A stretch of DNA of 50,286 bases, from positions 1 through 50,286 of the forward strand of contig JAAFIG010000012.1 in assembly GCA_013298595.1 (NCBI GenBank). The letters run 5' to 3'. Position numbers and translations under genes: made by a program. The notes below the pieces were generated by a model, which was given only the letters and a program-made list of their open reading frames with translations, searched no databases and was not told the DNA's origin. This DNA comes from Deinococcales bacterium. Lineage in GTDB: Bacteria > Deinococcota > Deinococci > Deinococcales > JAAFIG01. Shown one piece after another: positions 1-50,286 of the stretch (position 1 is the first letter of the stretch; each line of letters begins with the position of its first letter).

Positions 1-1
1 G

Positions 2-106
2 AAAGCTGTTGTGGAGAAGTGGTTACTTGATTTTTCTGGTGATGTTGAACGGGTTAAACGGTTGTGTGGGTGGGATTGGATCAAAGAGAATTTATGTCTT
101 ACTTAA
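2..106 (+). CDS. C-terminal fragment of an unidentified protein
   Basis: An open frame runs from the window edge and stops with TAA at 104-106. It encodes 34 residues rich in charged and Trp residues (for example ERVKRLCGWDWIKENL), which reads like a genuine protein end rather than random translation. The start lies outside the window. I do not recognise the family. The only other support is that the next 230 bases contain no gene on this strand and that an inverted repeat follows 28 bp downstream. Confidence 0.35.
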   Translation, partial: KAVVEKWLLDFSGDVERVKRLCGWDWIKENLCLT

Positions 107-133
107 ATGCCAATTTGGTATAACTATATCCCT

Positions 134-166
134 GAAATATTTTAGAGTTTTTTGCTAAAATATTTC
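134..166. repeat. 12-bp perfect inverted repeat
   Basis: GAAATATTTTAG (134-145) and CTAAAATATTTC (155-166) are perfect inverse copies around a 9-nt T-rich spacer. It follows the gene fragment ending at 106 and could be a weak AT-rich terminator, although no T-run follows the right arm on the plus strand. An operator or a remnant element end is also possible. Confidence 0.5.
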
Positions 167-204
167 CGACTAAAAGGAGTAAGGGCGACGTATTTCACGC
201 CGTA

Positions 205-310
205 ATGAGCGCGAGTAGCCCGCAAGGTGCTATTTTACGAGCAAGAACAGAATTGCCGTTTTTTGAAAATTCTAAAATGAGCGACCCTGCCCGCGAGGTG
301 CGTCTTAGGG
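205..310. repeat. Imperfect direct repeat in gene-free stretch 107-338
   Basis: Two related segments begin ATGAGCG and carry CCCGC(A/G)AGGTGC 13-14 bases later: 205-230 and 277-301. The stretch 107-338 holds no gene I can support. It lies downstream of both neighbouring genes, so it is a convergent intergenic region, and it contains no CTCGAG copy. Confidence 0.45.
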
Positions 311-338
311 TTAAGAAAAGCGTGAGATACTTAAAAAT

Positions 339-3300
339 TTAGAAACGGAAATTAAAACCAAAACTAAATTTAAATTGATTTGGAGCTGGTAAGCCAAAGG
401 TTAAAGCAATGGCTAAGTTCGAGGTAAAGTTGATACTCAACTGCGCTTCGGGTTGAATAATGGTCAGCAAATCGTAATTGGTTTCACCTGATGGCACAAT
501 AAATGGTGTACCAAAACGAATACCAAAAACCCCATCATCGCTTTGTAAATTCAAATTGATTTCTCCGCCCAGTACACGATTACCTGTTGGTGAAAGCCTT
601 GTATTATTAATTTGCAAACTCAGTCGTGCTGCTCGAGACAAATCAACCCCGAAATTCAGTGTGAAATTCACAGCTGCTTGAGTGGAGCTATCGGTTAAGT
701 TTTGAGCAACCACTTCGACTAAGTTGCTACGGAAATCCACATCAATGCCTGTAGCGGCTTTAATCTGCCGACTGATTTCACTAAGAATAAAAACACTGAG
801 CACCGTATCCAAAGATTGTTGTGCCAAACCGCCTAAGTCTGCATTGACACTGCCTAGTGTAACCAGCGAGTACAATTGAGCTGGAGTTAAAGATTCAAAA
901 CCATTTGGACAATTACCATCCACCGCTGGCTGCATGTCTATACGACGGTTATTCGGATTTTTTGTATCAGCAATCCAACGTAAACGAATCTTTAGAATGA
1001 CATCAATTTCTTTGGCTTGCCCATTTGGGTTGCTACTGTTCTTACAGGTGGCTTTGACCACACCCCTCGAGATAATCTGAACAACAGGGTAAAACCCTTC
1101 GATTGGGCTAAATTCTGCCACTGCTGACTGAATCTGATACGTGTTAATACCCAATTGCAATTTGCCTTTACCGCCCACTGCACCAACTGCCTCGAGCTGA
1201 CCATTGAGTTCTGGCACTGCCATCGTTCCTGTCAGTAGCAACTTACCACCTGCCTCGAGTGCTGCAAATGATTCGTTGATACGAATACCTTGTGGTGCAT
1301 TAAGGGTTACACCACGAAAACGCACTTGTTGCAAAAATACATTGGGTTTATTTGGCGTTGTTGGTTGAACTGGTTTTGTACTATCAGCTGGTTTATTTTG
1401 TTGCAATTGGGTTTGTAAACGCAACAAATTCACTTGCCCACCAATATCGTAGAAACGCTCACCATCACCAACAAAGGTTAAATCAGCATCGAGTAAGCTG
1501 TCTGAGACAAAGTAATCGGGAATAGGCATGACCAAATCCTTACCCTCGAGTTTGAGTTTAATACGTGGGCTAAGATCGCCTCTAAGTTTAATAATACCAC
1601 CTTTTTTAGCGGTTAAATCAAGTTTAAAACCACCTGAATCACCAAAAGCTCGAGCAGCAATATCGTTGATTAAGCCAATTGGTTTAATGTTCAAACTACC
1701 CAAAGCTTGCGCCTCGAGATCCTCGATTTTAATTGGTGTATAAGAAACCAATTTAGCTGTGCCTGTGGTGTCTAGGGTTGCCCCTAAGGATTCATCACTG
1801 CTGAGTACCCCTCGTACTTTAACCAAACCTTTCTCGAGTGTGCCAATCAGTTCTGAGGCATTGACTGCAATACCACCAAGATTACCTTTGAAATCCCGAA
1901 CGTTTAATTGTGCATCTGGTGTGCCATATTTACCACTGAGTTTTAACTCGAGGCTACCACTGGCTTTTGGATTGTATTCACGAATTTGGGGTAATAAATT
2001 CAGCAATGGTGTGAAAATGGTGTTCTGAAAACGCATTCCAAGGTCAACACGGTTTTTTGCATAATACCCATTGATACGCCATTCACCTTTGCCACGCAAT
2101 AACAAATTATCAAATTGCAAATCGCCATTACTAAAAATTAAGCGCCCATTGCCAGTTAATGTATCGCCTGCCCCTGAAACCTCGAGTGGGACAAAATCCA
2201 TTTTGACTGTCGAAGCTAGGAAGTTTTTGATTGGAATTTCATAACGAGCAAACCCTGTCGCTAAGGCTGTGCCAGGCATTTCGCCAAATAATCCAGCCGC
2301 AAAACCATGCAGCGGAGCACGGCGTAGATCAAGTGTTCCAGTAGCCACTTTACCATCGAACGAACCGCTGATAATCGAACGTCCAAAACCACCGAGACTG
2401 ATATTCTCGAGATCAGGATTATTATTTTGTGCACCGTAGATAAAACCCCTGTAACGAATGCTGGAACCTGCTGCTGTACCTTTGGCTTCACCTGCTAGGG
2501 TTAGGCGCTTACCATTTTGATCTGGCAGGCTGATTTCTGGGAAAATCAGATCAAAATCAATCACATCATCCACTATTTTTAAACGCCCATTGACTCGTCC
2601 ACGTAAATTGGGTGCAATATTTCTGACTTGTTCGACATCTTCAAGGCGCACTGTAAAAACACTGATTTTGATATCAATTGGTTGATCGCCTGGTTTTGAT
2701 TTGGTGTACGTCTCGAGGAAAGGTGCAACATCAGAAAGCCCACCATTGCCATTTAATTCGACATTACCGCCCAATGTTTTGCCTGTACCATTCAAAGTAA
2801 AGGTATCGCCTTTGAGTTCAATAGCTCCTGAAACTGTGGCACTGACTTGCGAAACCGAGAGTGGCAAACTGGTTGCATTGACTTTGCCTGTGATGCCTCG
2901 AGCATCGGCAGTGACAGTGCCTTTGACCACACCTTTGCCTTCAGCACCTCGTAAATCCACATTGACATCGCCTTGCCATAATCCTTGTTCAAAACGCAAA
3001 TCGCCTTTGGCAAGCCCTGGTGTACCTTTGTAATCCAGTAATAAACGCACTGGGTTTGTCTCGAGCACAGCGGTGCCTGTGCCATCAATTTTCCAACCCA
3101 CACTTGGTACCAGTAACGGTGTATCCAGATTCTGGAAAACAGCGCTGGCACGTCCCGACCAGCCAAAATCCGATGTGGCATCCTGACGTAAATCGGCTTT
3201 GATATCCACTGCCCCCGAATAGCCTTTTAAGCCGCTACTCTCAAGGGTAATGCCTGAAATTGTGCCATTAATTCTGCCTTGCTCTAGAGTAATTTGCCCA

Positions 3301-6300
3301 TTATGGATGCCATCCGTGATATTGAGTGTGCCTGTGGCTTGAGCATTCTCGAGTTGTACTTTAGCAGTGGCATTTATCTTGCCAATTTGACTTGTGATTG
3401 TGGCGGCTGGTTGCTCGAGTGTACCCGAAGCTGCAAGACTGAGTTTCAGGGCTTCATCTTGGTAATTAATAATGCCACTTAAATTGTTATTAACAAGTCG
3501 GATTTCGCCTGCGGCATTAGCAGCGCTGTCGGCTAATTTCAAGCTGGCAACCAATGGGCTAAGTTTAGCGTTCAAAGCAAAAGCGGCTCCAAAAATATCG
3601 CCACCGCCACTGAGTATTGGTGAGGCAAAAGCACCCGACACAGCGATTTTTGCTGTACCAGTTTTTGTTTTTGCACTCAGTGGTGTAGTTTTTGGCAAAC
3701 CGCTGAGTGCAATCTCGCCACTCCAACCATCTTTAGCATCGGCTGTTGTTGCGCCAGCAGCACGAATACCATTGCTCGAGGCATCAAGTTTGAGGGCAAG
3801 TTGATCGCCTACATAGCGTCCATCAAGTGCCCCTACAATTGAACCAGTCAATTGGGTTGAAAATCGGATATCAAGCGGTGATAAACTCCCCGAAGCATCC
3901 AGTACACCTTTGCTACCTGCCACAATAAATGGCACATCTGTTGCAATGATGCTATTTGGCTCGAGTTTAATTTCCCCAGATTTAAAGCGTAGTAAACCAG
4001 TTAATCGCTCTTTGTACAAAGCAGTGACTTTAGCATTGCCTATATCTACACCAGCGATACTGGCTGTTTTCAGATCACCTGTGATTGCTGCAATTGGTTG
4101 AGACAGTGTTCCGCTCAACTCGAGTTGCCCCTCAATTTGTCCTTTGGCGGCATCAAAAATGCCAGTTAATGAATTCTCGAGGGTTGTATCGATACTCAAT
4201 TGCCCTTTAATGCCAGTATCAAGTAATTGGTTTGCAGCTGTTAATTGTAATTCACCAACCAAGGTATTTTGACCAACCCGAATTTGATATGTGCCTGAAC
4301 TGTTACTTTGAACTCGCAATTGACGCAATGCCAATGGGAAATCTGGCAGACTTGCATCTATGGTTCCCTCGAGATTAGGGAATTGCCCACTGATATTACC
4401 TTTAGCTGTGGCAAAAGGTAATCGGGCTTCGCCTCGAGCATCTATGGTTGGGCGGCTCGAGAAAATATTGCTAACGGCTGCATAAACACGTCCACTGGCA
4501 GTGCCTCGAAGGTCAATAAAACCACTGAGTTCTGGGTTGAATAATTCTTTGCTGACATCTAAATTGGTATCGATTAACCATTTTTCCTTGGCTAAACCAA
4601 GTCCGATACCACGCAAAGTACCTGCGATTTTTGGTTGTTGTAAATTGCCACTCAGTTCAAAAATACCTGAAACCTTGCCTTGGGCTTGGAATGGCTCGAG
4701 GGACAGATTTTCCAAATTTGCAATCAGGGTTGTATTGGTGGCATTGCCTAGTTTTCCATTGACCTGCACACGCCCTTTGAGTGCTTCGACCACCAGATTA
4801 TTGACAGCCAGTTGCCCTTCTAAACCTCGGTCGTTGTACTCGGCAACAAAATTAGCTGCACCACTGGCTTTAGCCGCACCAATCGTAGCAACCTGACCAA
4901 CAAGCTCAAGGTTGCTGATAGCCACTTTGATATCCTTGGTGTTACCAGTTGCCACCACATCTACGCTGGTCTCGAGTTCTTCGATAGCTTCTGGTAAGAC
5001 AGTTGCCAATGCAACTTTTCTTAAACGACCACCCGCTTGCCAAACACCTTTTTCATATGTTCCAGAAAGTGTTGTTTTATCACCAACCAGACTGGCAATG
5101 AGTTTTTGGTCAGAGTAATCTGCTTGGATTTTTGCATTCAACGATCCCTTAGCACCTTCAAGATTTCCCAAAAAAGCGATTGTAGGTTCAGCCCAAGTGC
5201 CCGATGCTCGTCCAGTTCCATCAAGGAACAATTGATCTGGTTTTTGCCACCAAGCCGCTAAATCAAAACGCTCAAACTGCCACGTTGCCTCGAGCAGTTT
5301 ATCGCTGGTATTGGGAATTTTGGCAGTAAAACGCCCATTACGCCATTGCCAATTTGCCAGTAAATCTTTACTGCCAAGTAACTCGAGCTTGGTTTGTTGC
5401 CCTAATAGGCTACCCGCCACATCTATTTTTCCTGTAAAACCCTGAACCACTTCCCATTGCATTTTTCCTGTAGCGGTCAAACGAGTATCTTCAAATAAGA
5501 CTGGTGCATTAAGTTGCAAATTTGATTTAGTAATAGCTGTTAAACCACCTTCAATCTCTCCAGATAAAGCATCGCCTGTCAGTTGTACGCGCCAATTTGT
5601 GCCATCAAAAAACCCATCGAGTTTGGTGTCTGGTGCAACCAAACCAAGCGTGGCTGTACCAAATAAACCCGAAACCCGAACATCGGGTTTGGTAAATGCC
5701 CCAAGAATTCGCAAATCAAGTTTGACTGGAATAAAATCATAATCGCTGTTGGCAATACCAACTAAATCCAATTGAGGAAAAACCGAACCACCAAGCCGCA
5801 CTAAGGCAGCTTCTCGGGTCAGGACTGCATTCTCGAGTCTGATTTCGGGATTGACCAGTTTACCACCTAGAACAACATCTCCGACAAGCTGGGCAGCAAA
5901 TCCTTTAATCAGTTGCTCGGTATTCCCATCAAAGGTTATTCGCCCTGTGAGCGCACTCTCGAGCCACGATTTTTGCGTGGCGATTTGGATTGCACCACTG
6001 ACTAAATCTTGGCTTTGAATTGCATATTTTCCGTCGCCTGTCGCGGAAATTTTGATTGACTTTGCAATACTTGGTTGTTGCAAAACCAATGTGCCTAGCA
6101 AGTTTGGCAATGTACCACTCAGGTTGCTGCTGGCTTTGACAAATGGCAAATACGCATCACCGACCAATTGTACTGTTGGAGCGTCCGAGAGTGCATTACC
6201 CACGCGCCAAGTGAGTTCACCGCCCGCAGCGTCACCAATAAATTTTGTCACGCCAGCGATATCAGGATTAAGTAATTGGTTCCCCAACTCGAGACTGCTC

Positions 6301-9300
6301 GAGACATGCCATTGCTCGGATTGCAATCCAGCATTGATCAGATCTAATTTGCCAAGTATTTTAGGGTTGAGTAAATCGCCTTTGAGTGTGGCAGATCCCG
6401 AAAGTAGACCTTGCAATGGCATACTTTCTAAAACCAATAAACGAGCATCTAAATCTTTCATCTGTACGCTCGAGATAATCTGGGCATCTTGGGCAAATGG
6501 TTGATTGATTTGGGCTGTGATTACAGCTGTGCCAGCCAGCACCTCGAGATCAAGTTTTGTTTCGATATTGTCGTTGCTAACATTAGTTAATCCACGCAAT
6601 TTGAATTCGCCAACAGGTAATGCCCGACCCGTTAAAACCATATCTGTTACTTTAGCTCGCCATGTTTTATTGTCACCACTGGCTTCGAGCTGACTCGAAA
6701 GCACTAAACGCTGGAATTCCACAGGCAAGAGATTCTTAGGTAAATACGGCTCGAGTGCCAGAAATGAACTATTAGCAACAGCTTGCCATTTGCCATCACG
6801 CCAATTGGCTTTGGCTTTAATAGCAGCCCCTTCAATGGTTAGACCTGCCACTGCCGAATCGTAGTTCAGACCGAGTTTAGAATTGAGTAAACCATCTGAG
6901 CTTTTTAATAAACCAGTAAAATCTAATTCTGGCTTTGTCCAAGCACCTTGTGCCACACCTGTCCCCTCGAGCCAAAACGCATTTGGTTTACCATAAAATG
7001 CGCCCAGATCGGCTTTTTCAACTTCGATTTTGGCATCAAGTTCAGCCCCAATCTGACTTGGTAATGTGGCTTTTAAGCGCAAACCACGCCATGAGCTGCG
7101 TACCTCGAGTTGCCGACGACCTGTGATATCCAGCGAACCCGCTTGCCCAAATAAATCACCTTTGACATTTAACCCACCAATAAAACCTGTATTGCCTGTC
7201 CAAGCAATTGCGCCACTGGCGGCTAATCGATTATCCGAAAAAACCAGTGGAGCGTTTATTCGCAAATTAGCACTCGAGACAAAAGGAATACCGCCATCTA
7301 TCACACCTGAAAGTGCCGCCCCCATAAATTGCACTCGCCATTTTTTTCCATCGAATTTTGCCTCGAGTTTGGTGTCAGGAGCTACCAAACCAAGACTTGC
7401 CTCTCCAAGCACACCATTTGCCTCAAGTAACGGTTGCTCGAGCGTACCAGAGGCTTGCCAACTAAGGGTACTGGGCAAGTAAGCAAAAGCTGTTTTGGCT
7501 GTACCTTGTAAAGCCAAAACAGGAAAAATCTGCCCTTTAGCAACAGCTTGTACATCTATGCCTTGTACTGTGCTTGGCTCGAGGATCAGTTCACTATTGA
7601 CATATTTGGCAGCTCCTTTGACGGTGTAACCCGCCGCAAGAGCATTGATATTTTCAATACGCAGTTGATTATCACGCCACTCGAGTTGAGCAGTTGCTTG
7701 CCCTGCAACACCTGTTAAACCTTGTAAATCTTTGATATTCAAAGTACCACTGGCTATTTGCTGCTCGAGATTCCCCGATGCGAGCAGTTGGGCAGCATCC
7801 CAATCCGCACGAATATCGGCTGTATTACCGCGAATTTTTGCGGTTACCCCAGCTGTTTTCTCGAGCAATGAACCTTGCATTGTTAAATCTAAAACCCTAT
7901 CTGCAAACTCGAGACGACGACCAATGGCTTGTCCTTGTAATTTCCCAAGGGCAATTTCGGCATTCAGATTTGGGTAGAGCATCCCCGCAATACTGTATTT
8001 TTCGTTTATGGGTGTTGTACCCGTTAATTGACTTTCAATAATGCCATTTTGTGCTTTGATCGTACCATTTGCCGAAAACCCAAAGCCTTTAGCATTTTGT
8101 ACCATGATATTGCCTTGCATTTGGTTGATTGCAAAACGTGGTAATGCCAGTTGCCCTTGTATTCGACCACTGAGGTTAATACCAATCACTTGAGCTAAGC
8201 GTAAATCCAAATCTAATTTTTGTGCATTGATACCACTATCAGATACCTCGAGCAGCGATGAACTAGCCCCCACTTTGACTATACTTGAGGCGTTCCATTT
8301 TTGGGCAGCAACCACACCTGATGCCACCAAATCCACGGTTTGCTGATCGAGTTGTGTACCCAATAAACGGGTTTTGAAACTCAGTTTATTATTACGCCAA
8401 GTTGCCTCTAGTTGAGCCGACCCTGCTTTGATCCCTTTTTGGTATTCCTTGGGTAAACTACCCAGAATGGGTTGTAACGCTAATCTCCCCGAAGCACTGG
8501 CTGTTTGTATCGTGCCTGAACCAGTGGCTTGCAGCAATCCTGTTGTCTCGAGTTGCAGTCTAGGATTCGCCAATTGCCCTGAAAACCGTGCCACAACTGT
8601 GCCCGCTTGTTGGAACGCAAGATACCCAAAACCCAACTCGCCTTGCCACTGATTATTGTTTAGCAACAATGAACCAGCTTTACTCTCGAGTCGCAACCGC
8701 AAACCACTTTGCAGTGCAATTTGGAATGGCATTTTTTGTGCCCGCAAGGCAATTTGACCATTTGAGACAGCATAAGGTGTCTCGAGCAAATCAAGTCTCC
8801 CCTGCCCACGCAAGGTTTGTAAATTAACACTAGCATTGGCATAAATAGGATAGTCAGATGGTTCAGTCTCGAGATTGAGAATTGTATTCAGTGGAAAACG
8901 CCATTTAGCACTGCGGATTCGTAATGGAACAGCCCCACCAATATTGCCTGTAAAGGCATCATTTTCAAGCCATTTCGCTTGGATTGGCAGCCCAACCACT
9001 TCGCCACCAATATCACCGCGAAGGCTTTGCTGCTCCAGTCGGAGCGAACCACTCAAACGCGATTTGACTGGTAACACTGCGGCTAAATCAAGTTGGTTTA
9101 ACCTGACACTTGCCTGCCCTCGAGCGTTATAAGTTGCTTGTCCAGTACCACCGGTTGCATCTAAAGCCTCGATTTTAACAACATAGTCAGCAGCCTGTCC
9201 TTTGAGGCTGGCACTCAGTTGCAATGAATTTGGTTTGATACCCAATCTCGAGATTAAACCTAGGTTGTAACGCAGGTCGGGTATAGCAACCGAACCATTG

Positions 9301-12300
9301 ACTATCACTTGGCTTTGCAGTGTTGCTGGTAAATTAATGCCTGCTAAACTCGAGAGTCTAGTTGGCAATGTGCCAGCAATTTGCAGATTTTGCCAATCGC
9401 CAATAGCTGTTAATCGCCAATCTTTCCCATTGGCTTTTGCATCGAGTTTACCACGCCAGTTTTGATTTGCTTGTGTAAGGTTTAAAGCCACAGATGCCGT
9501 GGCTGCAAGCTGAATTTTTTCACCACGAAAAACCGTGCTGGCACTCGGTAATTGCATTTGTGTCTCGAGATTCTGCCCATTTAATCTGCCCGAGACCGTA
9601 CCAGCGCCCAGTAGCACAGTGGCTTGTGGATGTTTGATTCGCCCAGTTGCGAATTTAACATTACCTGCAATACTTCGAGCAACCATTAAACTGCCGTTTA
9701 CAGCCTCGAGAACCGCATTTGCACCAATCGCATTACCCTCGAGACGACCCGCAGACCAACGCAATGGTAATTGAGTAGCAGTTCCATTGCCCGAAACTGC
9801 GATATTGGTAGCAAAAGCTGTACCTGCCTTGGTTTGTGCTGCTGCGCTTGCCGCTTTAACATTGATCGCAAGTTGGTTGTCACGCAGTGTCACAATTCCG
9901 CTGGCATTACTCACTCGAGCGGGCACATTTGCAAACACACCTCGAGCCGTTGCCGCCGAGAAATTAATGGTATTTGTCGTATTTTTTTGCACAAAACGAA
10001 CTTGGACATTGCCACCTTGCACCGTGTTTCCTGCCACAGTTCCCGAAGCCGAATCGGCAACAGCACTGACAAGAATACTCGAGCCTTGCTGCGAAAGATT
10101 GCCTCGGATATTGCTTAAACGCAACGGTTTATTTTGATAAGCTGCATTGATATTCCCCGAAAAATTTGCCAGTACCGCACCATTCTCGAGTCTGGCATTG
10201 CTCAGTGTTAACCCAGCCACGACTCCAGCCACTGTGACATTGCCATTTTTGACTCGCCCAGTCAGATCAATACTATTTTTTGCCAGCGATAAACCTGTAC
10301 CTGCTAACAAAGATTCAGGCAACCTACCTGCTGCTCGAATCAGCAAATCATCGTAGGCACCACTGACACGTGCTTCTACACCTCGCACTTTTGCCAAAGC
10401 ATTGACTTGTGGGAACACTGCCCCTGATAAAGTCGCACCCGCAAATTGCCCACTTGTCACTCGAGCCTGAGCACTGAGTTTTAATTGCTTAGCTGTTATT
10501 GTCGCTTCGAGCGGCAACCCTGCAATATTGCCTATCATGGTAGTTGTACCACTCGAGTTGCGAATATTGAGTGTGGCAATACCAGAAACCAAATTGCGAG
10601 AAGCTGTTGGTAAAGCAGCAGCCAATGCCGAAAAATCAATTTTACCAATCGCCTCTAAACCAGTTTCATTGTATTTTATTTGAACATTCTGACCATTACT
10701 GAGCAGATTTCCACTGACTTTCAGTGTTTTACCAGCCTCGAGTACAATTCTGCCGCCTAAATTTTTACTTTGTGGCACAGCCGCTAATCGCAACGAGAAA
10801 GGCTCGAGTTGCACTGTGCCACTCAAAGCAGCTTTGATGCCGTTATATCCAGCATTACCTGCCAAATTCAGGCTCGAGCCAGTACCAGCAGCTGTCAGAA
10901 TACCAAAACGATTACGTGCCTCGAGCTTACCTGATGTCCGTAAACCCTCAAATGCCAGTGTCATATCACCACTGAGGAAGGCACTTTCACCAGCTGCTTG
11001 GACACGCCAAGCTCGAGGGCGGATATTTAGGCTATTCTCGGTGAGGGTGGTAAGCAGTTTATTGGCATTCCAACGTCCACGGATTCTTTGTCCAACCGAA
11101 AGCGTTAATTGCCCAGTAACATCATCCAAGTTGGCTTCTCCAAAACGCAAATCGTAGCCTCGAGCATTTCCTGCCAAAGCAACTCCTGCTGAATTGAGGA
11201 CATACTGGGCGGTATAATCAGCTTTGCCTCCAGGTTCAAAAGCAATGCCTTGTAAAGCCACTTGCCCTCGAGCAGGTGAACCATCGGTATTGATAATGGC
11301 TCCGCTGGCTGCAATCGCTCCTTTTGCTAGATTGGCTGTGCCAGATAAACCTTGAGCATTAAAATTCAGTGCATAATTCCCAGCAATATCTTTTAAGCCA
11401 AGACCTGGAATCTCGAGCCGAGCAGGGTTTAACAAACCTATTATCTTCATATTTTGCACTGTGCCAGCCACAACAGCTGTACCATTGATATTTGAAACAA
11501 CAGGTTTCTCGAGTGGCAATTGTATTGCATTAAATTTGCCATTGCCTGAAATTTTCTCAGCCACAATTTTCAGTTTTGCATCAGCAGTTCCACGCAGAAT
11601 TGTGCCACCAGCCGTTATTTGCACAGTTTCTTTCAGCACATTGACATTGGCATTTAAAGCTAACGGTGACTGCAAGAACTTGCCTAGTAACTTTGCATCA
11701 ACCAAAATACGTTCGCCTTGACTTTTCACAACTGCACTAGCGTTTAGTTTATCTGCGCCAATCCGAGTCAAAGCCGATACATCTGCCTCGAGATGATCGG
11801 TAAATTGCCATGTACTTTTGAGTTGCTCGAGTGGGAAACCTGCTACTTCTACGGTTTTTTCGCCATTGACTGTACCCGTAATTTTAATTTTCTCCCAACC
11901 CTGACCTTGCAACCGCACCTCGAGTTGCCCTTGACCAGCGGTTCCTTTGGCAAAAACAGGTAACACTTGCTCGAGTTTTGGACGTAGTACACCACTAAAT
12001 TGCAGATACTCTTTTTTGGTTGTTGTATTCACCAGCACATTGGCGTTGATTGCCCCACCTAAACCTTGTCCTGATAATTTGGCAACCACCTGACCAGCTG
12101 CGTTTAAGGTAGCTTTTCCTGTAATCGCTCGAGCCACAACCCCTGGCAGTACTTCGAGTGCACCATTTTGCACGTTGGCATCTACAGTCACTGTTGTTGG
12201 TGTGACAGTTATCGTTCCACGAATCTTGCCTTGTTCAATTTTCATGGGGATTGGTAATAACCAATGGTTTGCAATAGCGGCATCAACGTCGGCATCTATG

Positions 12301-12884
12301 ACCAAGTTGGGTTGTAAATCCTTACCAAATTCGTACAGTGTTGTTGTGAAACCTTTACCATCCTTGGTTTCGATATTGGCACGCAAATTTCCACGAATTG
12401 AACCATTACGGCTAGGCAATGCCGTTTGCTCGAGTAAGGTAATTTTACCATCTGGAACAAATAATTTTTTACCAATAAAATCCACTTCGGTATCGGTTAA
12501 ATTGGCTTGATCTAGAAAAACAGCAATTGGTGCAGGAGGTGCTTTCGGGTCTATGGGTGGTAAACCCACAGGATCAAAAGAAAACCGCCCACCAGCCAAA
12601 CTCGCCTCGAGACGTAATTCGCGTTTTTGTATCAAGGTACCAAGGTTGTATTTTGCTTTGACCGAAGCTGCTTTACCATTGATAAACGCACTTTTGACTG
12701 TGGCATCTACTGCTTCTACACCCGAGAATAAATTGCCACGCAATTGTTTAGCATCGATCTCGAGACCAGCAGCTTTGGCTTGTTGAATAGCAAAACGCAG
12801 TGCTGGTTGGGTGCCAGCTGCAATATAGACAGCCAACACCAAAAACAACAGTATTCCCAAGGTGATGGCAAGCCAACGACGCAT
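339..12884 (-). CDS. Giant TamB-like translocation/assembly module protein (4,181 aa)
   Basis: TamB-family proteins are inner-membrane-anchored, periplasm-spanning beta-helical proteins linked to outer-membrane protein assembly and lipid transport. Here one N-terminal membrane segment (about residues 5-23) is followed by thousands of residues of Gly/Ala/Asn-rich alternating beta-strand sequence. The last ~360 residues resemble the TamB C-terminal domain and end in a beta-barrel-like GFNFRF terminus. Enterobacterial TamB is about 1,260 aa, so this is over three times longer. An internal duplication is clear: GLVAPDTKL recurs at about residues 1833 and 2415, and surrounding blocks (FDG.WRV, LSG.I.GG, FLEGTG/FLDGTG) match at the same offset, a period of 582 residues. 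The ATG at 12884 has AGAGG 5-9 bases upstream. No BamA/TamA partner gene lies in the window. The assignment rests on architecture and the C-terminal domain; exact cargo is unknown. Confidence 0.85.
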   Translation of the reverse strand: MRRWLAITLGILLFLVLAVYIAAGTQPALRFAIQQAKAAGLEIDAKQLRGNLFSGVEAVDATVKSAFINGKAASVKAKYNLGTLIQKRELRLEASLAGGRFSFDPVGLPPIDPKAPPAPIAVFLDQANLTDTEVDFIGKKLFVPDGKITLLEQTALPSRNGSIRGNLRANIETKDGKGFTTTLYEFGKDLQPNLVIDADVDAAIANHWLLPIPMKIEQGKIRGTITVTPTTVTVDANVQNGALEVLPGVVARAITGKATLNAAGQVVAKLSGQGLGGAINANVLVNTTTKKEYLQFSGVLRPKLEQVLPVFAKGTAGQGQLEVRLQGQGWEKIKITGTVNGEKTVEVAGFPLEQLKSTWQFTDHLEADVSALTRIGADKLNASAVVKSQGERILVDAKLLGKFLQSPLALNANVNVLKETVQITAGGTILRGTADAKLKIVAEKISGNGKFNAIQLPLEKPVVSNINGTAVVAGTVQNMKIIGLLNPARLEIPGLGLKDIAGNYALNFNAQGLSGTANLAKGAIAASGAIINTDGSPARGQVALQGIAFEPGGKADYTAQYVLNSAGVALAGNARGYDLRFGEANLDDVTGQLTLSVGQRIRGRWNANKLLTTLTENSLNIRPRAWRVQAAGESAFLSGDMTLAFEGLRTSGKLEARNRFGILTAAGTGSSLNLAGNAGYNGIKAALSGTVQLEPFSLRLAAVPQSKNLGGRIVLEAGKTLKVSGNLLSNGQNVQIKYNETGLEAIGKIDFSALAAALPTASRNLVSGIATLNIRNSSGTTTMIGNIAGLPLEATITAKQLKLSAQARVTSGQFAGATLSGAVFPQVNALAKVRGVEARVSGAYDDLLIRAAGRLPESLLAGTGLSLAKNSIDLTGRVKNGNVTVAGVVAGLTLSNARLENGAVLANFSGNINAAYQNKPLRLSNIRGNLSQQGSSILVSAVADSASGTVAGNTVQGGNVQVRFVQKNTTNTINFSAATARGVFANVPARVSNASGIVTLRDNQLAINVKAASAAAQTKAGTAFATNIAVSGNGTATQLPLRWSAGRLEGNAIGANAVLEAVNGSLMVARSIAGNVKFATGRIKHPQATVLLGAGTVSGRLNGQNLETQMQLPSASTVFRGEKIQLAATASVALNLTQANQNWRGKLDAKANGKDWRLTAIGDWQNLQIAGTLPTRLSSLAGINLPATLQSQVIVNGSVAIPDLRYNLGLISRLGIKPNSLQLSASLKGQAADYVVKIEALDATGGTGQATYNARGQASVRLNQLDLAAVLPVKSRLSGSLRLEQQSLRGDIGGEVVGLPIQAKWLENDAFTGNIGGAVPLRIRSAKWRFPLNTILNLETEPSDYPIYANASVNLQTLRGQGRLDLLETPYAVSNGQIALRAQKMPFQIALQSGLRLRLESKAGSLLLNNNQWQGELGFGYLAFQQAGTVVARFSGQLANPRLQLETTGLLQATGSGTIQTASASGRLALQPILGSLPKEYQKGIKAGSAQLEATWRNNKLSFKTRLLGTQLDQQTVDLVASGVVAAQKWNASSIVKVGASSSLLEVSDSGINAQKLDLDLRLAQVIGINLSGRIQGQLALPRFAINQMQGNIMVQNAKGFGFSANGTIKAQNGIIESQLTGTTPINEKYSIAGMLYPNLNAEIALGKLQGQAIGRRLEFADRVLDLTMQGSLLEKTAGVTAKIRGNTADIRADWDAAQLLASGNLEQQIASGTLNIKDLQGLTGVAGQATAQLEWRDNQLRIENINALAAGYTVKGAAKYVNSELILEPSTVQGIDVQAVAKGQIFPVLALQGTAKTAFAYLPSTLSWQASGTLEQPLLEANGVLGEASLGLVAPDTKLEAKFDGKKWRVQFMGAALSGVIDGGIPFVSSANLRINAPLVFSDNRLAASGAIAWTGNTGFIGGLNVKGDLFGQAGSLDITGRRQLEVRSSWRGLRLKATLPSQIGAELDAKIEVEKADLGAFYGKPNAFWLEGTGVAQGAWTKPELDFTGLLKSSDGLLNSKLGLNYDSAVAGLTIEGAAIKAKANWRDGKWQAVANSSFLALEPYLPKNLLPVEFQRLVLSSQLEASGDNKTWRAKVTDMVLTGRALPVGEFKLRGLTNVSNDNIETKLDLEVLAGTAVITAQINQPFAQDAQIISSVQMKDLDARLLVLESMPLQGLLSGSATLKGDLLNPKILGKLDLINAGLQSEQWHVSSSLELGNQLLNPDIAGVTKFIGDAAGGELTWRVGNALSDAPTVQLVGDAYLPFVKASSNLSGTLPNLLGTLVLQQPSIAKSIKISATGDGKYAIQSQDLVSGAIQIATQKSWLESALTGRITFDGNTEQLIKGFAAQLVGDVVLGGKLVNPEIRLENAVLTREAALVRLGGSVFPQLDLVGIANSDYDFIPVKLDLRILGAFTKPDVRVSGLFGTATLGLVAPDTKLDGFFDGTNWRVQLTGDALSGEIEGGLTAITKSNLQLNAPVLFEDTRLTATGKMQWEVVQGFTGKIDVAGSLLGQQTKLELLGSKDLLANWQWRNGRFTAKIPNTSDKLLEATWQFERFDLAAWWQKPDQLFLDGTGRASGTWAEPTIAFLGNLEGAKGSLNAKIQADYSDQKLIASLVGDKTTLSGTYEKGVWQAGGRLRKVALATVLPEAIEELETSVDVVATGNTKDIKVAISNLELVGQVATIGAAKASGAANFVAEYNDRGLEGQLAVNNLVVEALKGRVQVNGKLGNATNTTLIANLENLSLEPFQAQGKVSGIFELSGNLQQPKIAGTLRGIGLGLAKEKWLIDTNLDVSKELFNPELSGFIDLRGTASGRVYAAVSNIFSSRPTIDARGEARLPFATAKGNISGQFPNLEGTIDASLPDFPLALRQLRVQSNSSGTYQIRVGQNTLVGELQLTAANQLLDTGIKGQLSIDTTLENSLTGIFDAAKGQIEGQLELSGTLSQPIAAITGDLKTASIAGVDIGNAKVTALYKERLTGLLRFKSGEIKLEPNSIIATDVPFIVAGSKGVLDASGSLSPLDIRFSTQLTGSIVGALDGRYVGDQLALKLDASSNGIRAAGATTADAKDGWSGEIALSGLPKTTPLSAKTKTGTAKIAVSGAFASPILSGGGDIFGAAFALNAKLSPLVASLKLADSAANAAGEIRLVNNNLSGIINYQDEALKLSLAASGTLEQPAATITSQIGKINATAKVQLENAQATGTLNITDGIHNGQITLEQGRINGTISGITLESSGLKGYSGAVDIKADLRQDATSDFGWSGRASAVFQNLDTPLLVPSVGWKIDGTGTAVLETNPVRLLLDYKGTPGLAKGDLRFEQGLWQGDVNVDLRGAEGKGVVKGTVTADARGITGKVNATSLPLSVSQVSATVSGAIELKGDTFTLNGTGKTLGGNVELNGNGGLSDVAPFLETYTKSKPGDQPIDIKISVFTVRLEDVEQVRNIAPNLRGRVNGRLKIVDDVIDFDLIFPEISLPDQNGKRLTLAGEAKGTAAGSSIRYRGFIYGAQNNNPDLENISLGGFGRSIISGSFDGKVATGTLDLRRAPLHGFAAGLFGEMPGTALATGFARYEIPIKNFLASTVKMDFVPLEVSGAGDTLTGNGRLIFSNGDLQFDNLLLRGKGEWRINGYYAKNRVDLGMRFQNTIFTPLLNLLPQIREYNPKASGSLELKLSGKYGTPDAQLNVRDFKGNLGGIAVNASELIGTLEKGLVKVRGVLSSDESLGATLDTTGTAKLVSYTPIKIEDLEAQALGSLNIKPIGLINDIAARAFGDSGGFKLDLTAKKGGIIKLRGDLSPRIKLKLEGKDLVMPIPDYFVSDSLLDADLTFVGDGERFYDIGGQVNLLRLQTQLQQNKPADSTKPVQPTTPNKPNVFLQQVRFRGVTLNAPQGIRINESFAALEAGGKLLLTGTMAVPELNGQLEAVGAVGGKGKLQLGINTYQIQSAVAEFSPIEGFYPVVQIISRGVVKATCKNSSNPNGQAKEIDVILKIRLRWIADTKNPNNRRIDMQPAVDGNCPNGFESLTPAQLYSLVTLGSVNADLGGLAQQSLDTVLSVFILSEISRQIKAATGIDVDFRSNLVEVVAQNLTDSSTQAAVNFTLNFGVDLSRAARLSLQINNTRLSPTGNRVLGGEINLNLQSDDGVFGIRFGTPFIVPSGETNYDLLTIIQPEAQLSINFTSNLAIALTFGLPAPNQFKFSFGFNFRF

Positions 12885-16452: not shown

Positions 16453-17124
16453 ATGCAAACAGATTCAACCTTGTTCGCTCGTCCGCAATTAGTGCGAAAC
16501 GAAGTCTACGAACACTTAAAACTCGAGATCCTATCGGGTATTCTCGAGCCAAACAGCAAACTGGCTGAAATTCCGTTATCCCAACGCCTTGGAATTAGTC
16601 GCACACCAGTCCGCGAAGCCATTCAACGCCTTGCCCAAGATGGATTAGTTGAAGTGATCGCCAATAAAGGCGCAAAGGTTCGTGGAATTGATGCAGCCGA
16701 AATCGAAGAAATATACGCTGTGCGTGAAGTCCTCGATGGACTGGCAGCTCGGCTTGCCGCTTCGCATCGTAGTCATAAAGACCTGAAAATCATGCAGAAT
16801 GCACTAACAAAACTCGAGACAGCCAACAGTACCGCTTACACTGAACAAGTCAATGCTGACCTCGAATTTCACAATGCCATTGCCAACGCCAGCGGCAACA
16901 GCACCTTAGAAAACACATTGCGTAGTTTCGCGCAAAGTGTAGCACGCGTTAAATTACTGACTCGAGCCTACAACCAAAACATCAATACACACGCTGCACA
17001 TCACGCTATTTTACAAGCAATTGAACAACAAAATGCCGACGCAGCCGAAACCGCAGCTCGAGAACATGTGCAGGATTTTAGGCAGTTACTTTTAACGCAA
17101 TTAAAGAAAGGAACATCCTTATGA
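16453..17124 (+). CDS. GntR-family (FadR/FCD) regulator, probable proline operon regulator
   Basis: A 223-residue regulator. The N-terminal winged helix (about 12-80) contains LSQRLGISRTPVREAIQRLAQDGLV, the classic GntR recognition helix. The C-terminal all-helical FCD ligand domain (about 90-215) carries E-x2-HN (LEFHNAIA) and HHAILQAIE, with metal-liganding His residues. The stop overlaps the next start (ATGA at 17121-17124), so it is translationally coupled to proline dehydrogenase, and its own promoter holds a GntR-like palindrome. Control of proline catabolism in response to proline or P5C is inferred from this context; the ligand itself is not proven. Confidence 0.85.
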   Translation: MQTDSTLFARPQLVRNEVYEHLKLEILSGILEPNSKLAEIPLSQRLGISRTPVREAIQRLAQDGLVEVIANKGAKVRGIDAAEIEEIYAVREVLDGLAARLAASHRSHKDLKIMQNALTKLETANSTAYTEQVNADLEFHNAIANASGNSTLENTLRSFAQSVARVKLLTRAYNQNINTHAAHHAILQAIEQQNADAAETAAREHVQDFRQLLLTQLKKGTSL

Positions 17125-18038
17125 TTGACCAATACTACCGCAGCGCTGTACTTGGCATTGCCAATGCTCCAACCATCAAAAACTTAATCCAAACTCGAGG
17201 CTATACACTGGCTAAACGCTATGTGGCAGGTAACGAATTAACCGATGCAATAGCAGCCGTCGAAACCCTCGAGCAAGACGGCGTACACGGAATCCTTGAT
17301 TTACTCGGAGAAATGATTAGCAGTAAAGAACAATCCGACCCATTTGTCCAAAAAATCCTCGAGATTTTCCCTAGTATTGCCAGTAAAACATTCCCTAAAT
17401 ATGTTTCGATTAAACTCTCACAACTGGGTTTAGATGTCTCTAAAAACCTTGCGCTCGAGAATGGACGCACCATTTTGCAAACTGCTAAAAACGTAGGTTG
17501 TTTTGTACGAATAGACATGGAAGACAGCCCGCGAGTGGATGCCACCATCGAAGTTTTCCGCACCCTTCGCAGCGAATTTGACAATGTAGGCTTGGTTTTA
17601 CAAGCCATGCTACGCCGCACCGAAAAAGACCTCGAGCATCTCGCTGACCTCAAACCGAATCTTCGCATCGTCAAAGGTGCGTACCTCGAGCCAGCCGAAC
17701 TAGCCTACCCCGAAAAAGCAGTCATAGATCACCAATACCGCCGCCTTGTGTATGCCAATCTCGAGAAAGGTAACCACACCGCCATTGCCACACACGACGA
17801 CAAAATTATAAACGATATGAAACGCTTCACCGAAAAAAGCAAGATTCCCAAAGAACAATTTGAATTTCAATTACTCTACGGAATTCGCCGCGATCTGCAA
17901 AAACAATTGGCTGCCGAAGGGTACACTGTTCGGGCATATATTCCATATGGACACGATTGGTATGCGTACTTCTCGAGACGAATTGCTGAACGCCCAAGCA
18001 ATGCTTTGTTTGTACTACGCGGCATGATTGGTGGATAA
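17121..18038 (+). CDS. Proline dehydrogenase (monofunctional)
   Basis: FAD-dependent oxidation of L-proline to pyrroline-5-carboxylate, passing electrons to the quinone pool at the membrane. The 305-residue length matches the compact monofunctional Thermus-type enzyme rather than the PutA fusion. Family motifs are present: VSIKLSQLG, CFVRIDMEDSPRVD, GLVLQAMLRRTEKDLE, LRIVKGAYLEP, IATHDDKII, FEFQLLYGIRRDLQ and the substrate-binding Y-x2-R-R-(I/L)-A-E-R-P-S-N near the C terminus. It overlaps the GntR gene by four bases. The dehydrogenase for the second step is 2.5 kb downstream on the same strand, beyond four unrelated genes. Confidence 0.93.
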   Translation: MIDQYYRSAVLGIANAPTIKNLIQTRGYTLAKRYVAGNELTDAIAAVETLEQDGVHGILDLLGEMISSKEQSDPFVQKILEIFPSIASKTFPKYVSIKLSQLGLDVSKNLALENGRTILQTAKNVGCFVRIDMEDSPRVDATIEVFRTLRSEFDNVGLVLQAMLRRTEKDLEHLADLKPNLRIVKGAYLEPAELAYPEKAVIDHQYRRLVYANLEKGNHTAIATHDDKIINDMKRFTEKSKIPKEQFEFQLLYGIRRDLQKQLAAEGYTVRAYIPYGHDWYAYFSRRIAERPSNALFVLRGMIGG

Positions 18039-43657: not shown

Positions 43658-43674
43658 ACGTAAAACGTAGTGGT

Positions 43675-44420: not shown

Positions 44421-44426
44421 GACAGA

Positions 44427-44466
44427 AAAGCTATTCAGCTATTGACCTATAAACCTGAATAGCTTT
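44427..44466. promoter_or_regulatory. Divergent operator of hydrolase and regulator
   Basis: AAAGCTATTCAG (427-438) and CTGAATAGCTTT (455-466) form a perfect 12-bp inverted repeat with a 16-bp spacer. TAGCTT in the left arm (minus strand, 44433-44428) is the -10 of the regulator. For the hydrolase, TTGACC (44442-44447) with TTTAAA (44464-44469) is a plausible promoter. Confidence 0.7.
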
Positions 44467-44483
44467 AAACCCACAATAAAACC

Positions 44484-45716: not shown

Positions 45717-45825
45717 TTTTATGCTAATCAAAAAGCTTGAGGCATCTTGATAAGGATAAGCCTTTGGTACACATTACCAATTAGTTATTCTTTAATCGTC
45801 TAGCATAGCGTAAACTTAGTCTACT

Positions 45826-45840
45826 TGAATAAATTATTCA
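45826..45840. promoter_or_regulatory. 15-bp palindrome upstream of wecG-like gene
   Basis: TGAATAA-A-TTATTCA is a perfect palindrome 50 bp before the start at 45891. The gap 45717-45890 contains no gene; TATGGT at 45874-45879 may be the -10. Confidence 0.4.
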
Positions 45841-45890
45841 TTATTGTATGACTCTTTGTTTATGCGTCAAAGTTATGGTTGAATTACATT

Positions 45891-46601: not shown

Positions 46602-46604
46602 TAG

Positions 46605-46635
46605 AAAAACCCCCTCGAGATTCGAGGGGGTTTTT
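46605..46635. terminator. Bidirectional terminator
   Basis: AAAAACCCCCTCGA (605-618) pairs perfectly with TCGAGGGGGTTTTT (622-635), serving the two convergent genes. CTCGAG forms the tip. Confidence 0.95.
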
Positions 46636-46652
46636 GTTGCTGTTAAGAGCGT

Positions 46653-49600
46653 TTAGCGCCAACCAAATGTGCGTTCGTCAAGTTTCCAGTCTATGCGGAA
46701 GTACAAGCCTGGTCGGAAGGTGTTACCGATGGCGTTGTTCAGTCCAACAAAGTTGTAACCAACTGTGAACAGCAAGTTATCTACCAATCGGAAGCTGCCC
46801 TCTAAGCCGAAGGCTCCGCCGAATTGACCTGTGCTTGGTTGGAAGTTGATTGCACCTTGGGCACCAAAGGCGAGTGTGTCCGAGACAAAGTAAGTAAAGC
46901 CGCCGCTGAGTTGCATGGTGAATGCACCAGCTGTGAATGGTAAGCGGTATGCAATGCCGCTGCGGGCAAAGAGGTTCTCGTTGGCTTGGTATCCAAATTG
47001 GAATTCACCTTCGATAATATCTGTTGCACTCGAGCCTGTACCCCTGTAAAGACCGAACTTAGCAGTGTTGTTGCTGAGGATTGTCCAGTTATCACCACGG
47101 TAAGCCAAGGCAATGCTGAAAGTACCACCATCGGCAAAAGTTGCGCCTGGGTTGCTCCAGATGCTTGGGTCTGTGGCGTATTCAATTTGTGGGCTGATGA
47201 CAAATTGTTCGCTAAGTTGGGCAATCGCACCGATGGTGTAAACCTGTTTCACACCCGATGGCAAGAAGCTATATTGAGCGCGAGCATTGATCTTGGTTGT
47301 TGTATCGCTGTACAAGGCACCAAGGGCAACACCACCACGTGGTTCGCTGGCATTTGGGGTCAGGTTAGCATCGGCAGCCAGTTGCACACTGAATGTATCT
47401 GACAATGGGATGCTGGTAGCAAGTCCAACTCGAGCACGTCCTGCATCGCCATTGACGGTGTTGAGGTCGTAGGTCGCAAAGACATTGGTTTGTCCGAAAG
47501 CATTTGGTGCAATACTTTGATTACCAAACAGGTTACGGAGCAATTCGCTGTTGCTGAATGCACCTTGAACACCAAAGCTGATTTGTTGGCTGATGCCATT
47601 GTATTCGTAGGTCAGTTTATCTGAGAGTAAAACACTGAAAGCACTTGAGAGTGGTACCTCGAGACGAACTGTGGTGCTGCCGTATGTGGTTGCATCGCCA
47701 ATTACTGGGACTTGTTGTAATAAGCCTAATTTGGCAAAGCCAAGTGAGACATTGGCATTTAATGTTGCCCAGAGTTGATTGCGGTCTGATGGGAAGCTGT
47801 ATTGGTATGCCAAGCCGATACCTGCGGTGAAACCACCACCGAAGTCGTTGCGAACTTGGGCGCTGATACCTGTACCACCGCTGCCATTGGCATAGCTTTG
47901 GGTGTGGTTAAGGTTAGCTTCAAAGGCAAAGCCACTACCAAGCACTAAGCCAGCAGTCAGGCTGCGTCCAGAGATATCCGAGAAGCTGCTTGGATCTATG
48001 AATCCTGGTTGACGGTCTTGTAAAGCTGCACGGAATTGGAAGTCTCCTGAGGTAAAGCTAGTGCTGGCAGCTAAGCCAAAGGCTTGATTACCAAAGACAC
48101 CAGACAAGGCACCTTCAACACCTAATTGGAAGCCACCACTGCGGATACCAACACCTGCACCAAACAAGATGCCTGAGTTACCACCAAAAGAACCATTTTG
48201 GTATTGCAATGCGGTGGCAGTGAAGTTAAAGCCATCGTTGCCAAGGGTAGCTTGTGCACCTGCACGCAAGTCTCGAGCGACTGCGCCTGTGGCGTAATCC
48301 ACTTCGATACAGTTGATGTTGCCATTTGCGTCGGTGCTAGTGATTCCTTGGTTGAGACGCAAGATACCAACTTCGTAACGGATGTTGTAATCAATGCCTC
48401 GAGTTAAGTTGACTCGGCGCAATTCGGTTTTTGGTACGCCAGCAAGGCATGGGTCTGTGGTGACGGCTGGATCGTTTGGTGCACGGTTCAAACGGTAAGT
48501 GACAACCATGACACGTTCGGTATCTCGGTTGATACCTTGTGGCAAGAAGTACGTATCGGTTGAATCGGCTTGTTTACGGAAACGTGGTTGGTTAGCAGTT
48601 GGTGCATCAGCGATGAAGGTGTTGACTTGTACACCACCTCCACGCACAAGGGCTTGTAAGCCGTTGTAGTTTGCACCGTAGCTCGAGAGCACACCTGTAA
48701 AGCCTGGGCTGAAACGTCCAAATTGGGCAAAGCTTTCACCGCTTTCGACACGTAAGAAAATACCTTCATCGGAGCGGATGTCGCTACCAAGTTGGCTTGA
48801 GTCGCCTTTGAGTGGGAAGCGTTCAAATGGGTTAGCTGGTGGCAAGAGGTTGCCGCTGAGTCGGAATTGGTCCACGCTACGGGTTGGGTCGTAATCGGCT
48901 TGCCAGTTAATACCAAGTGTGACGTTGATATTTGGTAACACTGCACCACGTAAGAAGAGGCGTAAGCCACCATCTGCGGTGAAGTTACCCGTATCAAGGT
49001 TGAATTGTCCGCCAACACTGAGTAAGCCAACGCCAACCACTGGACGGTCTACAGCGGTGGTATTGGTGCTGTTAGGTTGCAACGGGGTTGGGTTATTCGC
49101 CGTTAATCCATTGCTGGTGACACGGAAGTTTTGGGTCGAGGAGATATTGCCGTTATCGTTACTGATACGAGCTTCAACACGAACTTCAGTAATTGGGTTG
49201 AAGTTTTGTTGTGAAGCCGAATTCGAGAGGTTCTGTAAACGCACGCGTCCAACACCGTTCTCGAGACGGACTTGGTAACCAGGAATGCTAGGAGCTGCAT
49301 CTGGGTCGAGCATATCTACACTGGACTCGAGGGTGGCGTACATATCGCTGGCTGGTAATCCGTCGGCATCGAAGGCTTCAACAATGATGCTTGGGTTGTC
49401 AATGCTATCGGTGGTTGGGTTTTCGACGCGCACACGTACACTGCGGGCTTGTCCGCCTTGTGGACGGGCATCCGTGTTGGTGGTTGCACCTGCAAATGGT
49501 ACGGCTTGTCCAAGTAACTCGAGGATATTGGCATCGCCTTGTAAGACAACTAGGTCGCCTGTACCAATGATTTTGCCAAGGGCACTATCTGGTGCGATAC

Positions 49601-50286
49601 GTACACCACTTAAACCATTCGCTGAACGGCTTGGGATGGCTGCGACAACGGCAACTCGGTCTTGTGGCATGTTTAATGCACCAGTGTGGGCTAAGCGATA
49701 ACTGATACCGTAAACTGCCATATTATTGACAGCTGGCACAATCCAGAATAAGCGGTCGCCAGCAACAAATGGATCGTTGATATCTGTACCCTCAGAATTG
49801 GTTGGGGTGTTGACATCAAAGGTTGGGGTGGTAACTAAACGGCTCGAGCCTGCAATATACGTCGAGCCTTCAGGAATCCGATCCGAAAGAATCAGCGTTG
49901 TGCCTGACAATGGAATTTGCGCTAATTTAGCCAGCAAAATCACTTGGCTTTCACGGCGTTGAGCAGGTAAGACAGTTGGACGCACAGTTACCGAAGTTGC
50001 ATCGGTGACATTACAATCTGGCTCGAGGCTACCAGTGATGGTGGCATCATTGACTGGTCGAACAGCACGGACTGGGATAGTCAGCACCAAATCACTACCA
50101 GTTTTGATTGTGCCACTCGAGGTTAATTCACCTGTAGTGGAAAGTTCCGTTGGTAACTGCACACGAATTGTAGCTGCAACTGGGTAAGGGAAATCGGTTG
50201 AAGCTGTGGCTGTGACAGTGCTGGTTTCGCCTACGGCAAGATTGAGTGCATCTGGGGTCAGGTCAAGGCTGAGGTCTACGGCGTAC
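46653..50286 (-). CDS. Large outer-membrane protein, N terminus outside window
   Basis: At least 1,210 residues; the frame is open to the window end, so the apparent GTG start at 50162 is not the true one. The visible N-terminal part has DUF11-like beta domains (LAVGETSTVTATASTDFP; LILSDRIPEGSTYIAGSSRL), then an Ig-like segment, then RVNLTRGIDYNIRYEVGILRLNQ, then about 550 residues of alternating amphipathic strands rich in Gly/Phe (FQFRAALQDRQPG, FAFEANLNHTQSY, LFARSGIAYRL) ending FGWR, typical of an outer-membrane beta barrel. Similar large proteins are encoded in Deinococcota. Possible porin or secretion/anchoring role; not assigned. Confidence 0.85.
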   Translation of the reverse strand, partial: YAVDLSLDLTPDALNLAVGETSTVTATASTDFPYPVAATIRVQLPTELSTTGELTSSGTIKTGSDLVLTIPVRAVRPVNDATITGSLEPDCNVTDATSVTVRPTVLPAQRRESQVILLAKLAQIPLSGTTLILSDRIPEGSTYIAGSSRLVTTPTFDVNTPTNSEGTDINDPFVAGDRLFWIVPAVNNMAVYGISYRLAHTGALNMPQDRVAVVAAIPSRSANGLSGVRIAPDSALGKIIGTGDLVVLQGDANILELLGQAVPFAGATTNTDARPQGGQARSVRVRVENPTTDSIDNPSIIVEAFDADGLPASDMYATLESSVDMLDPDAAPSIPGYQVRLENGVGRVRLQNLSNSASQQNFNPITEVRVEARISNDNGNISSTQNFRVTSNGLTANNPTPLQPNSTNTTAVDRPVVGVGLLSVGGQFNLDTGNFTADGGLRLFLRGAVLPNINVTLGINWQADYDPTRSVDQFRLSGNLLPPANPFERFPLKGDSSQLGSDIRSDEGIFLRVESGESFAQFGRFSPGFTGVLSSYGANYNGLQALVRGGGVQVNTFIADAPTANQPRFRKQADSTDTYFLPQGINRDTERVMVVTYRLNRAPNDPAVTTDPCLAGVPKTELRRVNLTRGIDYNIRYEVGILRLNQGITSTDANGNINCIEVDYATGAVARDLRAGAQATLGNDGFNFTATALQYQNGSFGGNSGILFGAGVGIRSGGFQLGVEGALSGVFGNQAFGLAASTSFTSGDFQFRAALQDRQPGFIDPSSFSDISGRSLTAGLVLGSGFAFEANLNHTQSYANGSGGTGISAQVRNDFGGGFTAGIGLAYQYSFPSDRNQLWATLNANVSLGFAKLGLLQQVPVIGDATTYGSTTVRLEVPLSSAFSVLLSDKLTYEYNGISQQISFGVQGAFSNSELLRNLFGNQSIAPNAFGQTNVFATYDLNTVNGDAGRARVGLATSIPLSDTFSVQLAADANLTPNASEPRGGVALGALYSDTTTKINARAQYSFLPSGVKQVYTIGAIAQLSEQFVISPQIEYATDPSIWSNPGATFADGGTFSIALAYRGDNWTILSNNTAKFGLYRGTGSSATDIIEGEFQFGYQANENLFARSGIAYRLPFTAGAFTMQLSGGFTYFVSDTLAFGAQGAINFQPSTGQFGGAFGLEGSFRLVDNLLFTVGYNFVGLNNAIGNTFRPGLYFRIDWKLDERTFGWR

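What the first reader, a model, noticed from the sequence alone, without database searches (positions are those of the whole stretch)
1..50286. CTCGAG is a HIP1-like hyper-abundant palindrome
Eight copies in 10001-11000 against about 0.2 expected per kb, with similar density elsewhere. It occurs in all reading frames and both strands, so it is not a codon effect. The motif is also an XhoI-type recognition site. Such abundance suggests selection or a copying bias (methylation, repair, recombination, or chromosome organisation), analogous to HIP1 in cyanobacteria. I know of no description for this motif in this group.
Basis: partly seen in the sequence, partly recalled or inferred. Interest (0 to 1): 0.8.

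Follow-up and report, generated by a model that had tools for sequence, protein, structure and literature searches.

The report
CTCGAG repeated every 170 bases genome-wide
An uncultured group of bacteria related to Deinococcus and Thermus carries the six-letter word CTCGAG about 27,000 times per genome, some 30 times more than chance and often enough to change its proteins; something unknown creates and keeps these sites, and none of the usual DNA-methylating enzymes explains it.

Summary
CTCGAG occurs 299 times in the window (5-10 expected) and 27,159 times in the 4.58-Mb genome, one per 169 bp. All four genomes of the family and one genus of a sister family share it (6-8 per kb at 45-60% GC). 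The nearest named relatives are uncultured Deinococcales MAGs.

It is not a codon effect. Preserving proteins and codon usage predicts 336 sites where 4,140 occur; non-coding DNA is as rich (observed/expected 30-46 in four genomes), and all codon phases are used. The motif alters the proteome: Leu-Glu dipeptides are 2.2-2.4x enriched, Glu-Leu is not. Sites are maintained: 63% stay intact between congeners versus 22% of matched hexamers. Single-mismatch neighbours are not enriched as a group, so recognition is all-or-none.

The analogy with HIP1 holds in behaviour, but the HIP hallmark, a matching methyltransferase, was not found: no methyltransferase of five families is shared by the motif-rich genomes, and there is no XhoI-type nuclease and no Vsr. 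I read this as a new, denser, HIP-like element kept by per-site selection or biased repair through an unidentified sequence-specific DNA-acting protein. That agent is inferred.

The parts
1..50286 (.). 299 CTCGAG sites spread over the whole window, 5.9 per kb (1-10 per 1-kb bin)
339..12884 (-). 4181-aa ORF without a Pfam match; a long coding stretch across which many of the sites lie
17121..18038 (+). proline dehydrogenase gene; its DNA aligns to Deinococcales MAG locus L159
20503..22059 (+). aldehyde dehydrogenase (probably 1-pyrroline-5-carboxylate dehydrogenase) gene, used to find named relatives: 89% and 83% aa identity to two MAGs named Deinococcales bacterium
20785..20797 (.). one of the two closest pairs of sites (7 bp apart); pairs under 15 bp are 2-6x rarer than expected

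Best explanation
CTCGAG is a HIP-like genome-wide DNA element of an uncultured Deinococcales lineage. SHOWN: the intact hexamer is gained and kept about 30-45 times above background wherever the DNA lies (non-coding, synonymous and amino-acid-changing positions), its one-mismatch neighbours are not enriched as a group, and it is conserved far better than its surroundings. INFERRED: a sequence-specific DNA-acting protein, probably chromosomal (nucleoid, repair or recombination), reads the duplex hexamer. Each site gives a small independent advantage, or is favoured when heteroduplex is repaired, with a scaled strength of about ln(37) = 3.6 (2Ns or conversion bias). New sites therefore fix more often than expected and old ones are lost more slowly, until about 27,000 are held in balance with mutation and protein constraint. 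Foreign islands arrive without sites and fill up with time. The agent is not identified.
For: Genome counts in G000-G003 and G012/G016. Non-coding observed/expected 30-46 in four genomes although density runs from 4.5 to 10.6 per kb with GC: a near-constant multiplicative bias. Synonymous-codon null 336 vs 4,140. Leu-Glu O/E 2.2-2.4 with Glu-Leu about 1.0 in G000-G003, but 1.11 vs 1.13 in the motif-poor relative G004. Site conservation 148/233 vs 22% in same-composition hexamers at 74.5% DNA identity, 37% vs 14.5% and 48% vs 14% across genera, with few one-mismatch states. Codon pair CTCGAG kept 95/131; other Leu-Glu codon pairs 4/61; Glu-Leu 11/68. Neighbours summed near background: 1,206 seen vs about 1,590 expected in G000. 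Pairs 7-14 bp apart at 0.16-0.53 of expectation in all four genomes, fitting a footprint or diminishing returns. Hazard roughly flat from 60 to 300 bp and only slightly lower at 300-600 bp, so sites act independently beyond short range. Site-poor stretches are mostly low-GC polysaccharide or restriction islands.
Against: No candidate protein was found. Selection and biased repair are not separated by these data. Short-range depletion is uneven among genomes and could partly reflect protein constraint. Conservation rests on 38 kb of alignable DNA between congeners. The apparent fall in loss rate (about 3-fold from the conservation figures) is smaller than a simple one-coefficient model predicts, possibly because of saturation.
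Confidence: 0.5

Rival explanations
1. Methylation-coupled drive, as proposed for HIP1 by Elhai: an orphan methyltransferase marks CTCGAG and a methyl-directed mismatch repair biases heteroduplexes towards the intact site.
For: Every cyanobacterial genome with a HIP has a methyltransferase able to modify it (PMC4390886). Each motif-rich genome here holds several DNA methyltransferases of unknown specificity. CTCGAG is a known type II methylation site (general knowledge: XhoI/PaeR7I).
Against: No orthologue of any PF00145, PF01555, PF02384, PF02086 or PF07669 enzyme is shared by G000, G001, G002, G003 and G012; the widest well-conserved cluster covers three of the five (G000, G001, G012) and also motif-moderate G062. 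No XhoI endonuclease, no Vsr in motif-rich genomes. No C-to-T decay signature expected of 5-methylcytosine: CTTGAG/CTCAAG is not the dominant neighbour. One-mismatch forms are not concentrated at the outer bases as in HIP1.
Confidence: 0.3
2. DNA-uptake drive: competence machinery prefers CTCGAG-bearing fragments, so the word accumulates by recombination as in Haemophilus and Neisseria.
For: Competence is known in the phylum; uptake words accumulate by molecular drive (Maughan et al. 2010, cited in PMC6561018). Imported islands lack the sites.
Against: [quoted passage not shown] Known uptake words are longer, non-palindromic and roughly one per kb (general knowledge). One site per fragment would suffice, yet hazard does not rise with distance from the last site.
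Confidence: 0.1
3. Pure protection: bound or modified sites mutate more slowly and accumulate without any bias in gain.
For: Sites are better conserved than controls.
Against: From the conservation figures, loss is slowed only about 3-fold (my estimate) while abundance is 20-46-fold up, so gain must be raised too; Leu-Glu enrichment shows gains through amino-acid changes.
Confidence: 0.05
4. Codon or codon-pair preference, or an assembly or linker artefact.
For: Phase 0 (Leu-Glu) holds the largest share of coding sites; milder enrichment in other relatives is mostly phase 0.
Against: Synonymous null explains 8%; non-coding density equals coding; independent MAGs of several genera agree and sites are conserved inside genes.
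Confidence: 0.01

Closest known systems
HIP1 (GCGATCGC) of cyanobacteria
   Same: Short palindrome, extreme genome-wide excess in coding and non-coding DNA, evidence for maintenance by selection (Xu et al. 2018 as cited in PMC6604393).
   Different: Different word and phylum (HIP1 itself is absent from the window); about 5,900 per Mb here against 500-2,500 for most HIPs and one per 1,131 bp in Synechocystis; no shared methyltransferase found; no outer-base bias of near misses.
Alternate HIPs, e.g. GGCGCC in Calothrix PCC 7103
   Same: A six-base palindrome replacing the usual one; top of all hexamers.
   Different: Reported as sporadic single strains with matching methyltransferases and O/E around 15.5 in the related D253; here two families, O/E 20-30, no common methyltransferase.
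DNA uptake sequences (Haemophilus USS, Neisseria DUS)
   Same: Short word accumulated genome-wide.
   Different: Palindromic, shorter, denser, and enriched in all frames; sequence-specific uptake is not known in Thermus.
XhoI/PaeR7I restriction-modification
   Same: Same recognition word.
   Different: No XhoI-family endonuclease or full-length cognate methyltransferase in the family; restriction sites are usually avoided, not enriched.

Membership tests
HIP (highly iterated palindrome) class | Palindromic word in extreme genome-wide excess | tested here: met
HIP (highly iterated palindrome) class | Excess not explained by codon use, present in non-coding DNA | tested here: met
HIP (highly iterated palindrome) class | Methyltransferase(s) able to modify the word present in every HIP-bearing genome | tested here: inconclusive
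   No orthologous enzyme shared across five families searched; specificity of the unrelated enzymes present is unknown and genomes are 91-94% complete
HIP (highly iterated palindrome) class | One-base deviations concentrated at first and last base (HIP1) | tested here: not met
   Near misses follow transitions at all three half-site positions
HIP1 proper | Sequence GCGATCGC in a cyanobacterium | tested here: not met
   0 copies in the window; nearest named relatives are Deinococcales
XhoI/PaeR7I-type restriction-modification | XhoI-family endonuclease (PF04555) with cognate methyltransferase | tested here: not met
   Absent in all motif-rich genomes; only G009 has a frameshifted copy
DNA uptake sequence | Preferential uptake of DNA carrying the word | not testable with these tools
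   needs a cultured strain
Dcm/Vsr very-short-patch drive | Vsr endonuclease with cytosine-5 methyltransferase at the word | tested here: not met
   Vsr absent in G000-G003, G012 and G016

The most novel reading that the evidence does not exclude
A lineage-wide, methyltransferase-independent genomic element: a conserved Deinococcota DNA-binding or repair protein reads CTCGAG every 170 bp and exerts a constant bias strong enough to recode the proteome, with a weaker ancestral form across the order.
Probability: 0.35. Interest if true: 0.88.

Novelty: new variant of a known kind. Interest (0 to 1): 0.78.

Why it matters
What makes HIP1 so frequent has stayed open since its discovery, and the leading published model ties it to methyltransferases. 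This case gives an independent, denser and lineage-wide example outside cyanobacteria in which no shared methyltransferase was found. It has graded relatives: none in G004, 5-11x in several others, 20-30x in the focal clade. A near-constant non-coding factor lets the strength of the bias be measured. It also shows a short DNA word reshaping dipeptide content across a proteome.

Tried and rejected
Regular spacing (one site per fixed length): the window alone looks regular (gap CV 0.76), but larger samples give CV 1.00-1.11 and a roughly flat hazard beyond 60 bp.

GAGCTC avoidance as a linked phenomenon: rejected, since most palindromic hexamers are avoided.

Spread by a mobile repeat: no extended flank similarity; flank preferences (C depleted at +3) are partly generic to GAG outside the motif, although stronger in strict non-coding DNA.

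5-methylcytosine decay: no signature.

Viruses with the same motif: one viral-contig scan returned 80 loci; the 15 most enriched were all 58-70% GC, explained by composition, and none resembled this low-GC case.

tRNA genes: too few in the sample for a density test.

One probe (NDCGAG) wrongly included the motif and was ignored.

Full report
Observation. CTCGAG occurs 299 times in the 50,286-bp window against 5.2 in dinucleotide shuffles. It is the commonest hexamer; the next palindrome has 38. The eight copies in 10001-11000 are exact. The genome holds 27,159 in 4.58 Mb, and the reversed word 15. High-order Markov models are misleading here because the motif supplies its own sub-words: the 4th-order expectation is 249 of 299 in the window, but 134 of 4,748 in 0.83 Mb once the motif is masked.

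Where it lives. The same density is found in the congener G001 and in two further genera of the family (26,619-28,178 copies in 4.2-4.5 Mb) and in G012 and G016 of a sister family (21,868 in 3.5 Mb; 14,690 in 1.9 Mb). The sister-family genomes G004 and G008 have 683 and 13,552. The closest named relatives of the window's aldehyde dehydrogenase are two MAGs called Deinococcales bacterium (89% and 83% identity), whose loci carry 7.7 and 7.2 sites per kb. I infer an uncultured Deinococcales (Deinococcota) family. Small samples from other families of the order show a weaker excess of 5-11x, partly a codon effect in GC-rich genomes, so a graded ancestral trait is possible but not established.

Not codon use. 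Permuting synonymous codons with proteins kept predicts 336, 202, 352 and 236 sites in G000-G003; 4,140, 2,350, 2,137 and 2,031 are found. In DNA free of ORFs the observed/expected ratio is 30-46 in all four genomes while density runs from 4.5 to 10.6 per kb with GC. All codon phases are used. Leu-Glu is 2.2-2.4 times over-represented, Glu-Leu is not, and 66-75% of Leu-Glu pairs are spelled CTCGAG; in G004 the Leu-Glu ratio is 1.11. The motif therefore drives amino-acid change.

Maintenance. In 38 kb of DNA aligned between congeners (74.5% identity) 148 of 233 sites are intact against 22% of hexamers of the same composition; across genera 37-48% against 14%. Codon pairs CTCGAG are identical in 95 of 131 cases, other Leu-Glu pairs in 4 of 61. 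Near misses are rare at lost sites and not enriched genome-wide as a group, so only the perfect hexamer counts. An excess of about 37 corresponds to a scaled bias of about 3.6 (my calculation), weak per site but acting at some 27,000 places.

Spacing. Beyond 60 bp the chance of meeting the next site is roughly flat, which argues against a need for one site per fixed length. Pairs 7-14 bp apart reach only 0.16-0.53 of expectation in four genomes, consistent with a footprint or diminishing returns. The longest site-free stretches in G000 are mostly low-GC islands, among them a polysaccharide cluster and a restriction/defence island, so sites accumulate after arrival of DNA.

Agent. No XhoI-family nuclease occurs in the family. 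A cognate-type methyltransferase taken from G009, next to its broken XhoI gene, finds only one full-length distant homologue, in G002. Five methyltransferase families were searched; no orthologue is shared by all motif-rich genomes. The cytosine-5 enzyme at G000 C15 (L003) is in G001, G012 and motif-moderate G062 but not in G002 or G003. Vsr is absent from the motif-rich genomes. Genome incompleteness (6-9%) could hide an enzyme in one genome but hardly in several.

Comparison. It works like HIP1 and the alternate HIPs (PMC4390886) in being a palindrome in extreme, selected or driven excess. It differs in word, phylum, density (about 5,900 per Mb against 500-2,500 for most HIPs), breadth across families, the pattern of near misses, and the failure to find a shared methyltransferase. 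Two HIP features are met, one is inconclusive and one is not met, so I call it HIP-like rather than a HIP1 member. No earlier description was found in open-access papers; closed literature was not searched.

Limits. Selection, biased repair and methylation-coupled drive are not separated. Methylation, binding and population frequencies could not be measured.

Noticed in passing
window 1-50286; samples of G000-G003: Nearly all other palindromic hexamers and the tetramers GGCC (1 copy in 50 kb), CCGG and CTAG are strongly avoided, suggesting a heavy restriction load.
   Followed up: partly
L044:10960-14661: Methionine synthase carries an in-frame insertion (...SREGDHKGRPYEKLP...) absent from the G004 homologue; it looks like a palindromic repeat inserted within an ORF.
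   Followed up: no
window 339-12884 (-) and 46653-50162 (-): ORFs of 4181 and 1169 aa with no Pfam match.
   Followed up: partly
L039:1788-3581 and L001: In G009 a frameshifted XhoI-family endonuclease follows an Eco57I-type methyltransferase: a decayed restriction system.
   Followed up: partly
G000 C34:70-84 kb and C66:77.6-81.1 kb (sampled loci L043, L044, L051, L052): CTCGAG-free low-GC islands of up to 4.3 kb (polysaccharide and defence genes); site density may serve as a residence-time clock for imported DNA.
   Followed up: partly
G002 intergenic DNA: CTCGAG reaches 14-22 per kb just downstream of stop codons in G002, and is mildly raised there in G000 and G003.
   Followed up: no
L399-L425 samples of G062, G070, G005, G075, G006, G102: A weaker CTCGAG excess (5-11x) across the order, including genomes of 44-52% GC.
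   Followed up: partly
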